Shown here: piece after piece, positions 51,041 to 52,750 of the stretch
Layout: every line of letters begins with the position of its first letter
How positions within the stretch are numbered: position 1 is the first letter of the stretch
Position numbers and translations under genes: made by a program
The notes under the pieces: model-generated
Seen by the model: the letters and a program-made list of their open reading frames with translations, nothing else
What the model was told of the DNA's origin: nothing
Database searches by the model: none
Assembly: GCA_021792255.1 (NCBI GenBank)
Contig: JAJYUZ010000001.1
Location: forward strand, 62,001 to 126,000
DNA: 64,000 bases
From: Thermoplasmata archaeon
GTDB taxonomy: Archaea > Thermoplasmatota > Thermoplasmata > Thermoplasmatales > GCA-001856825
Reading direction: 5' to 3'

Positions 51041-52132
51041 ATGAAAATCATAAAAAACTCCGCCGCCCTCTCACAAGATTACGTTCCAGAGATAGTTTTA
51101 GGAAGAGAGGAACAGATAAATCAGCTAAAGGAATTAATCAGAGTCAGTGACGTCTCTTCTACATTTGTGATCAGGGGAAACCCAGGAACTGGAAAGACTC
51201 TAACCGGCAAGTATCTTTTGAAAGACCTGAAGGAATTCAATGGTGTGTACGTCAACTGTTATGTCAACCAAACGGACAGGTCAATAGTATCTAGCATTCT
51301 TGATAATCCAAACATCAGGCTTCCAGAGATAGGAAACACAAGATCAGAATCTTTGTCCAATCTTTTATTCAAAGAATTGCCTTCCAAGAAAAACTTAATT
51401 GTGCTCGACGAGAGTCAATCACTAAAGCGGAGTCACGGTCAGATTGTTTACTTGCTATCTAGGAGCAAGGAACTGGGCGGACCGGATATAAAATTGGTAC
51501 TCTTGTCGATGGAAGAACCAGAAATGTATCTTGACAGAAGCACATTATCGGGTTTGGGCAGATACAACAGGATCACTTTGAAAGAATACAGTATCAGCGA
51601 GCTCTTTAATATCCTCAAATCTCGAGCAAGTATCAGCCTATATGAAGGAGCATACACGGATTCCGCAATAGGTAAGATATCTGAACTTACTGAAGAGAAC
51701 GGAAGCGCCAGGATCGCAATAGAATTGTTAAGAAATTCCGCCCTATTTGCAGAATCGAGGGGCACATTTCTAGACGATGAGACAGTCCTCAATGCTTACA
51801 GGGAATTTTCTCCACCTCTTGACGAAAGCTCGCTGATCAATCTCGAAGAGGACGAAATTCATCTGTTGAGGTCTTTATTAGAATTAACAGACATTGAGAA
51901 CGGATTCAAAGCATCAGACCTAAAGAATCTACGGCCCGACTTGAGCGACTCAAGAATGTACAAATTTTTAAAAACAATTGAACTGTCTGGACTAGTCAAA
52001 AAAAGCAGGGTGGGAAAGGGGTATTCGGGAGGAGTCGAAAATGAGTACCTGCTAAGAGTCTCGCCACGCGTACTAATCAGTAAATTGAGCCTAATTGAGA
52101 AATCAATTGGAATGTCCCAAAAGGAAGACTAG
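51041..52132 (+). CDS. cdc6: Orc1/Cdc6-like AAA+ protein (copy A, divergent)
   Basis: LGREEQINQLKELI; Walker A GNPGTGKT; Walker B LIVLDES; ARIAIELLRNSALFAE; C-terminal winged helix-like. Confidence 0.85.
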   Translation: MKIIKNSAALSQDYVPEIVLGREEQINQLKELIRVSDVSSTFVIRGNPGTGKTLTGKYLLKDLKEFNGVYVNCYVNQTDRSIVSSILDNPNIRLPEIGNTRSESLSNLLFKELPSKKNLIVLDESQSLKRSHGQIVYLLSRSKELGGPDIKLVLLSMEEPEMYLDRSTLSGLGRYNRITLKEYSISELFNILKSRASISLYEGAYTDSAIGKISELTEENGSARIAIELLRNSALFAESRGTFLDDETVLNAYREFSPPLDESSLINLEEDEIHLLRSLLELTDIENGFKASDLKNLRPDLSDSRMYKFLKTIELSGLVKKSRVGKGYSGGVENEYLLRVSPRVLISKLSLIEKSIGMSQKED

Positions 52133-52198
52133 AAATTCGTCCGAGTTATACGTTCAAATACCGAAAGATATATATAGTGTCATATTAATGTCATTATT

Positions 52199-52750
52199 AT
52201 GTCAGACAATTTTAGAGTACTCGGTGTTGGAGGTGCTGGGATTAATGCGGTAAAGGCTCTTGGTTATAGCAATTCAATCTATTTAGATTCTCAAAGTTAT
52301 GATTCTCTAGAGGGTATAAAGGAATTTCTCAAAAGGATCAGCAGAAATGAGAAGGTAGTCGTAATCTCATCGCCAGCTGGAGAATTTTCATCCGCGGTAC
52401 TAGAAACTGTCTGTAACGCTCTCAACTCAAATGGAGATAGCGTTTTCTTGATAGGAATAATGCCATTTCATAGCGAATCCCCTGAAAGGAAGAGGAGAGG
52501 GGACGCCGTCCTTAGAAATTTAAAAAAAGCCGTAGACTCCACCGCAATCATTGAAAACGAGAACTTTGCTTCTTCCATGAGAGAATATTCTTGGACTCAG
52601 GTACTGGCTAGGATCAACGATCACGTCGCTGACCTTGTCAAAGAATTTATCACTCTTGGAGAAAATCAATTTTCCCCTACGGTACATGAAGTTGTGGTAT
52701 CCAAAAGACAATTGGAATACTCTCCAACCGTGCCTACTGTTTCTAACTGA
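52199..52750 (+). CDS. Divergent FtsZ/tubulin-superfamily-like protein, GTPase-domain-only and T4-loop-deficient
   Basis: FRVLGVGGAGINAVKAL (T1-like); GIMPFHSESPERKRRGDAVLRNLKKAVDSTAIIENENF and ARINDHVADLVKEFIT align by eye with FtsZ; GGGTGTG replaced by SSPAGEFS. Confidence 0.65.
   Translation: MSDNFRVLGVGGAGINAVKALGYSNSIYLDSQSYDSLEGIKEFLKRISRNEKVVVISSPAGEFSSAVLETVCNALNSNGDSVFLIGIMPFHSESPERKRRGDAVLRNLKKAVDSTAIIENENFASSMREYSWTQVLARINDHVADLVKEFITLGENQFSPTVHEVVVSKRQLEYSPTVPTVSN

What the first reader, a model, noticed from the sequence alone, without database searches (positions are those of the whole stretch)
52199..52750. Minimal FtsZ-like protein lacking the tubulin GTPase signature, beside a divergent Orc1/Cdc6
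The 183-aa product starts FRVLGVGGAGINAVKAL (FtsZ T1 nucleotide loop). It then keeps a strand-helix pattern matching FtsZ around PF...E...R...A...LK..VD..I.I.N and VLARINDHVADLVKEFIT. Where FtsZ has GGGTGTG it reads VVVISSPAGEFSSAVLE, and the C-terminal activation domain is absent. It may be a nucleotide-sensing or capping partner of FtsZ, or a non-polymerising regulator linking replication (cdc6 next door) to division. FtsZ-like families outside canonical FtsZ are described in archaea and bacteria (FtsZl-1, FtsZl-2), but a domain-truncated, T4-less version would be different.
Basis: partly seen in the sequence, partly recalled or inferred. Interest (0 to 1): 0.78.

Follow-up and report, generated by a model that had tools for sequence, protein, structure and literature searches.

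The report
Single-domain pseudo-FtsZ beside Orc1-like gene
One family of Thermoplasmata archaea carries a stripped-down relative of the cell-division protein FtsZ that keeps half the fold, has lost the parts needed to burn GTP and build filaments, and has stayed beside a replication-initiator gene; it is probably a regulator of division, but its function is untested.

Summary
ORF 52199-52750(+), 183 aa, is a real FtsZ-superfamily protein: Pfam Tubulin 36 bits (cut-off 33), and every listed Foldseek match of its AlphaFold model is FtsZ (best E 2e-7, TM about 0.7). It is one domain only. The S3-T3-H2 stretch is deleted (T1-to-T4 span 44 residues against about 81), the T4 signature GGGTGTG is replaced without gaps by AGEFSSA, and T7 plus the C-terminal domain are gone. 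It is not a broken gene: 13 orthologs across four genera of one Thermoplasmata family keep SPAG.(F/Y)SS and PF.SES.ER..R, dN/dS is about 0.09, and the gene follows a divergent Orc1/Cdc6 gene in all 13. Three sister genera have about 250-aa versions with an extra C-terminal part, so the 183-aa form is the most reduced stage. Its promoter is unusually conserved (TGTCA three times at 11-bp spacing) and unique in the genome. Residues aligned with FtsZ ribose, alpha-phosphate and base contacts are largely kept, so the best reading is a non-polymerising pseudo-GTPase that tunes the cell's three canonical FtsZs. That role is inference. FtsZ-like proteins lacking the C-terminal domain recur across Thermoplasmata, so this is a new variant of a known kind.

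The parts
52199..52750 (+). 183-aa single-domain FtsZ-like protein (called FAM in the report), stop codon included
52211..52246 (+). T1 loop FRVLGVGGAGIN (aa 5-16); G11, A13, G14, N16 invariant in 13 orthologs
52367..52396 (+). T4 position: SSPAGEFSSA (aa 57-66) in place of the GGGTGTG signature; SPAG and SS invariant
52463..52489 (+). T5: PFHSESPER (aa 89-97); E93 and R97 align with the FtsZ ribose and alpha-phosphate contacts, both invariant
52553..52567 (+). T6: ENENF (aa 119-123); N120 aligns with the guanine-contact Asn of FtsZ
52592..52657 (+). H7 core helix (aa 132-153), with N140 at the base-contact Asp/Asn position of FtsZ
52664..52747 (+). Low-confidence, fast-evolving tail (aa 156-183) where T7 and the C-terminal domain would be
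52178..52204 (+). TGTCA direct repeats at 11-bp spacing between TATA box and start codon (the third overlaps ATGTCA); operator-like, unique in the genome
52145..52176 (+). Upstream promoter part: GTTATACGT element and TATA-like box
51041..52132 (+). Divergent Orc1/Cdc6 AAA+ protein (363 aa), directly upstream in all 13 genomes

Best explanation
It is a lineage-fixed pseudo-GTPase paralog of FtsZ: one nucleotide-binding domain that still folds like FtsZ and probably still touches a nucleotide through T1, T5, T6 and H7. It cannot be expected to hydrolyse GTP (T3, T4 and T7 elements lost) or to form head-to-tail filaments (no bottom face). Most likely it acts as a non-polymerising regulator: its surviving top face docks on the exposed T7/C-domain face of canonical FtsZ subunits or filament ends and limits or shapes Z-ring assembly, somewhat as ARC3, SulA or MciZ restrain FtsZ. 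Its dose is set by a dedicated operator. Shown here: fold, losses, conservation, synteny, promoter conservation. Inferred: nucleotide binding, lack of hydrolysis, FtsZ docking, inhibition, any timing link to replication.
For: Fold: AlphaFold model pLDDT 79.7, all 50 listed Foldseek matches FtsZ. Loss of catalytic parts, retention of T1, T5 E/R, T6 N and H7 N. Purifying selection, dN/dS 0.08-0.09 over aa 1-150. Target present: the genome has three canonical FtsZs and SepF. Conserved orc1-like/FAM gene pair in 13 of 13 genomes. Promoter -30..-1 identity 0.79 between genera against 0.32-0.65 for five neighbouring genes, although the protein is only 31-39% identical between genera. Precedent: ARC3 inhibits FtsZ assembly (PMC5471200).
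Against: No interaction or nucleotide-binding data. T3 and the T4 glycines, which hold the phosphates, are gone, so nucleotide binding may be lost too. The longer orthologs carry an extra C-terminal part that a pure top-face cap would not need. Conserved gene order may only reflect slow rearrangement, since most neighbours are conserved too.
Confidence: 0.42

Rival explanations
1. It is a guanine-nucleotide sensor or switch working with the adjacent Orc1-like protein, controlling replication initiation or orc1 expression rather than FtsZ filaments.
For: Strict orc363-FAM adjacency in four genera while the downstream gene differs (threonine synthase only in g1). Base and ribose contact residues retained.
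Against: The flanking genes (AKR, SpoU, folC, second orc1) are syntenic too, so adjacency is weak evidence. Each gene has its own conserved promoter-like sequence, so no shared transcript is shown.
Confidence: 0.2
2. The FtsZ domain has been repurposed as a scaffold or transcription factor with no link to division, possibly binding its own promoter repeats.
For: The TGTCA repeat array is deeply conserved and occurs once in the genome, as expected for a dedicated autoregulator.
Against: No DNA-binding domain seen in the protein. T5 and T6 residues typical of FtsZ are among the most conserved.
Confidence: 0.17
3. It co-assembles with another C-domain-less FtsZ-like protein of the genome (class B, 272 aa, G000:C3:254684) in an unconventional polymer.
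For: Each of the eight other f1 genomes with FAM scanned also has a class B-like frame of 255-285 aa, as does the window's genome. Class B keeps GGGTG(S/T)G in most lineages.
Against: Both lack the C-terminal domain with T7 that makes the longitudinal contact in FtsZ. No shared gene neighbourhood.
Confidence: 0.11
4. It is a decaying or truncated FtsZ gene, or an assembly error.
For: Short, and the C-terminal tail evolves fast.
Against: Same length class in nine genomes of the genus, invariant motifs, dN/dS about 0.09, conserved promoter.
Confidence: 0.02

Closest known systems
Canonical FtsZ (FtsZ1/FtsZ2, Pfam PF00091)
   Same: Fold of the GTPase domain, T1 GGAG, T5 PF..E...R, T6 N, H7 N/D
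   Different: No S3-T3-H2, no GGGTGTG, no T7, no C-terminal activation domain; 183 aa against about 340-400
Compact FtsZ-like 'class A' of other Thermoplasmata families (e.g. L079, L081, L142; my label)
   Same: Shortened T1-T4 span (63 residues), altered T4, shortened part after H7, no deletion in T5, PF..ESPER-like T5
   Different: Keeps a recognisable FtsZ C-terminal domain (hhalign E 1e-5 to canonical) and a GLGG-type T4; different gene neighbours
C-domain-less FtsZ-like 'class B' of Thermoplasmata (e.g. L093:5984-6799, L104; my label)
   Same: GTPase domain only
   Different: Full T1-T4 span, mostly intact GGGTG(S/T)G, one-residue T5 deletion in most members, usually next to a ribbon-helix-helix-like gene
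FtsZl1 and FtsZl2 (Makarova and Koonin 2010, PMC2875224)
   Same: FtsZ-superfamily paralogs outside the canonical families
   Different: Those keep GGGTG(S/T)G and carry a coiled coil or about 300 aa more; FAM has neither and does not match Tubulin_2
ARC3 (chloroplast FtsZ-assembly inhibitor)
   Same: FtsZ-derived (my knowledge), non-canonical, proposed here to work alike
   Different: Plant multi-domain protein with MORN repeats; similarity of action is only inferred

Membership tests
Tubulin/FtsZ superfamily (PF00091) | Pfam gathering score | tested here: met
   36 bits against 33 for the window protein; two longer orthologs fall just below, 29-30 bits
Tubulin/FtsZ superfamily (PF00091) | FtsZ GTPase-domain fold | tested here: met
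   Predicted model only:
Canonical FtsZ | T4 signature GGGTG(T/S)G | tested here: not met
   AGEFSSA in the same columns, SPAG.(F/Y)SS in 13 of 13
Canonical FtsZ | T7 catalytic loop and C-terminal activation domain | tested here: not met
   Protein ends about 30 low-confidence residues after H7
Canonical FtsZ | NCBIfam TIGR00065 equivalog cut-off | tested here: not met
   34.3 bits against 295.2
Canonical FtsZ | GTP-dependent polymerisation | not testable with these tools
   needs biochemistry
FtsZl1 (Tubulin_2, PF13809) | Match to Tubulin_2, GGGTG(S/T)G, coiled coil | tested here: not met
   only PF00091 hit, T4 signature absent, 183 aa
Class A compact FtsZ-like (f4, f2) | Common ancestry with FAM apart from other FtsZs | tested here: inconclusive
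   Architecture agrees, but the tree puts FAM with fast-evolving class B2 on long branches flagged as unreliable; C-terminal part z 1.9 to class A, about 0 to canonical
Class B C-domain-less FtsZ-like | T5 one-residue deletion and RHH-like partner gene | tested here: not met
FtsZ-assembly inhibitors (ARC3/SulA/MciZ-like action) | Binds FtsZ and blocks assembly | not testable with these tools
   needs binding and sedimentation assays

The most novel reading that the evidence does not exclude
A dedicated, non-polymerising single-domain pseudo-FtsZ, co-evolved with a divergent Orc1/Cdc6, couples replication status to Z-ring assembly in an archaeal family: a checkpoint made from a worn-down cytoskeletal subunit.
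Probability: 0.14. Interest if true: 0.82.

Novelty: new variant of a known kind. Interest (0 to 1): 0.55.

Why it matters
If it binds FtsZ it would be an archaeal FtsZ regulator derived from FtsZ itself, in a domain of life where few division components beyond FtsZ, SepF and PRC-barrel proteins are known. It would show how a filament subunit can be cut down to a regulator, with longer forms preserved in sister genera. Its position next to an Orc1-like gene makes a replication-division link directly testable.

Tried and rejected
Pseudogene or truncation: rejected. Non-FtsZ Rossmann protein: rejected. Membership in class B: rejected on T5 deletion, T1-T4 span and neighbours, although the tree groups FAM with class B2 (long-branch warning). 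Proof that the C-terminal part of the 250-aa orthologs is a shrunken FtsZ C-domain: not obtained (hhalign score within shuffles; z 1.9 and 0); predicted strand-helix order E-H-E-H-E-E fits but confidence is low. Wider regulon for the TGTCA motif: none, one perfect site only. Replication origin from GC skew: no clear inflection. Viral relatives: none found. Two same-genus genomes without FAM (76% and 52% complete) also lack the Orc1-like gene, so they say nothing. Literature searches found no description of this family in the open-access library; subscription papers are not covered.

Full report
The ORF at 52199-52750(+) encodes 183 aa exactly as described. It passes Pfam's gathering score for the Tubulin/FtsZ GTPase domain, 36 bits against 33, over aa 36-125, but is far below the FtsZ equivalog cut-off (34.3 against 295.2 bits). 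An AlphaFold2 model from 13 orthologs has mean pLDDT 79.7, with low confidence after residue 155. Each of the 50 best listed PDB matches is FtsZ, best E 2e-7, query TM 0.60-0.71.

Anatomy. The alignment with canonical FtsZs of the same order and the profile alignment show three losses. The T1-to-T4 span is 44 residues (38 in genus g3) against about 81, so S3, T3 and H2 are missing. The T4 loop reads AGEFSSA in the columns of GGGTGTG, without a gap. Everything after H7 is gone in the window's genus apart from a short tail. T1 GGAG is kept in three of four genera (GDAG in g3). T5 E93 and R97, T6 N120 and H7 N140 align with positions that, from established FtsZ structures (my knowledge), contact ribose, alpha-phosphate and guanine; E93, R97 and N120 are invariant and N140 nearly so in 13 orthologs. 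The picture is a pseudo-GTPase: nucleoside side kept, phosphate and catalytic side lost.

It is maintained. Orthologs occur in 13 genomes of one family, four genera; named examples are MAGs labelled Thermoplasmatales archaeon A_EUR_01 and Thermoplasmata archaeon DBS2-4.bin120. Invariant residues include SPAG, S64-S65, PF, SES.ER..R and EN.NF. dN/dS over aa 1-150 is 0.08-0.09 in three pairs; the tail is relaxed. A sample of 400 genomes of the class gave no hit of comparable strength outside the family, and none was found in viral contigs.

Stages of reduction. Genus g1 has 175-183 aa; genera g2, g3 and g4 have 248-251 aa with about 100 residues after H7. That part is predicted as E-H-E-H-E-E, the order of the FtsZ C-terminal domain, but at low confidence, and sequence tests do not prove homology: profile score within shuffles, z 1.9 to class A and about 0 to canonical, against 11.5 for the positive control. 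I treat it as likely but unproven.

Relatives in the class. Two other non-canonical lineages exist (labels mine). Class A (families f4 and f2, about 260 aa) has a 63-residue T1-T4 span, GLGG-type T4 and a shortened but recognisable C-terminal domain. Class B is spread over the class, lacks the C-terminal domain, mostly keeps GGGTG(S/T)G, and is usually next to a small protein; one of these matches a ribbon-helix-helix model over its cut-off (RHH_1, 26.1 bits against 20.5), others only below threshold or by eye. The window's genome has a class B gene as well as FAM, so FAM is not class B. FAM looks closest in architecture to class A, but the tree does not settle this; it joins FAM with class B2 across long branches with an explicit artefact warning.

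Neighbourhood. The gene follows a 363-aa divergent Orc1/Cdc6 in all 13 genomes. Clear orthologs of this Orc at 44-50% identity are found in the sister genera; the best matches in other families are about 27-32% identical over most of the length. Downstream threonine synthase is found only in g1. Since the AKR, SpoU, folC and second orc1 genes are also syntenic, the pairing is suggestive and not proof of function.

Promoter. Upstream DNA is strongly conserved: identity between genera at -30..-1 is 0.79, against 0.32-0.65 for five neighbouring genes, while the protein is only 31-39% identical between genera. The conserved block is GTTATACGT, a TATA-like box, and TGTCA three times at 11-bp spacing, the last overlapping the start codon. 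The geometry implies a leaderless transcript (inference). The motif occurs perfectly once in the genome, so it looks like a dedicated operator and not a regulon site. The binding protein is unknown.

Function. The genome has three canonical FtsZs and SepF, so a target is present. With the top face kept and the bottom face missing, docking on the T7 side of FtsZ and limiting assembly is the simplest mechanism, with ARC3 as precedent for an FtsZ-assembly inhibitor (PMC5471200). This step is inference; I give the whole mechanism 0.42, and the pseudo-GTPase reading alone about 0.9.

Novelty. Paralogs of archaeal FtsZ lacking known motifs are noted in general terms in PMC2875224, and FtsZl1/FtsZl2 are different families. 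I found no description of this family in the held library. It is a new variant of a known kind.

Noticed in passing
L093:5984-7175 (own genome G000:C3 about 254480-255680); also L087, L102, L104, L106, L109, L145-L149, L025: A C-domain-less FtsZ-like gene (class B) sits directly beside a small ribbon-helix-helix-like gene across much of Thermoplasmata; it recalls the cdrS-ftsZ2 locus (PMC7439475), but with a truncated FtsZ.
   Followed up: partly
L079:5888-6682, L080-L083, L085, L086, L088, L090, L091, L142: Compact FtsZ-like proteins (class A, about 260 aa) with shortened T1-T4 region, altered T4 and shortened C-terminal domain in two other families.
   Followed up: partly
L141:5404-5994: A separate 197-aa FtsZ-like protein in family f2, with degenerate T1 and T4 GGRTGTR, next to the RHH-like gene: minimal forms seem to have arisen more than once.
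   Followed up: partly
L148:4902-5666, L149:4738-5502: In the family that includes a genome with a 1,584,804-bp contig (the length I recall for Thermoplasma volcanium), class B has a degenerate T4 (GFGGSFAQ, GFGGNFSQ).
   Followed up: partly
window 52145-52204: Triple TGTCA repeat at 11-bp spacing plus GTTATACGT, the best conserved promoter of six compared; reader protein unknown.
   Followed up: partly
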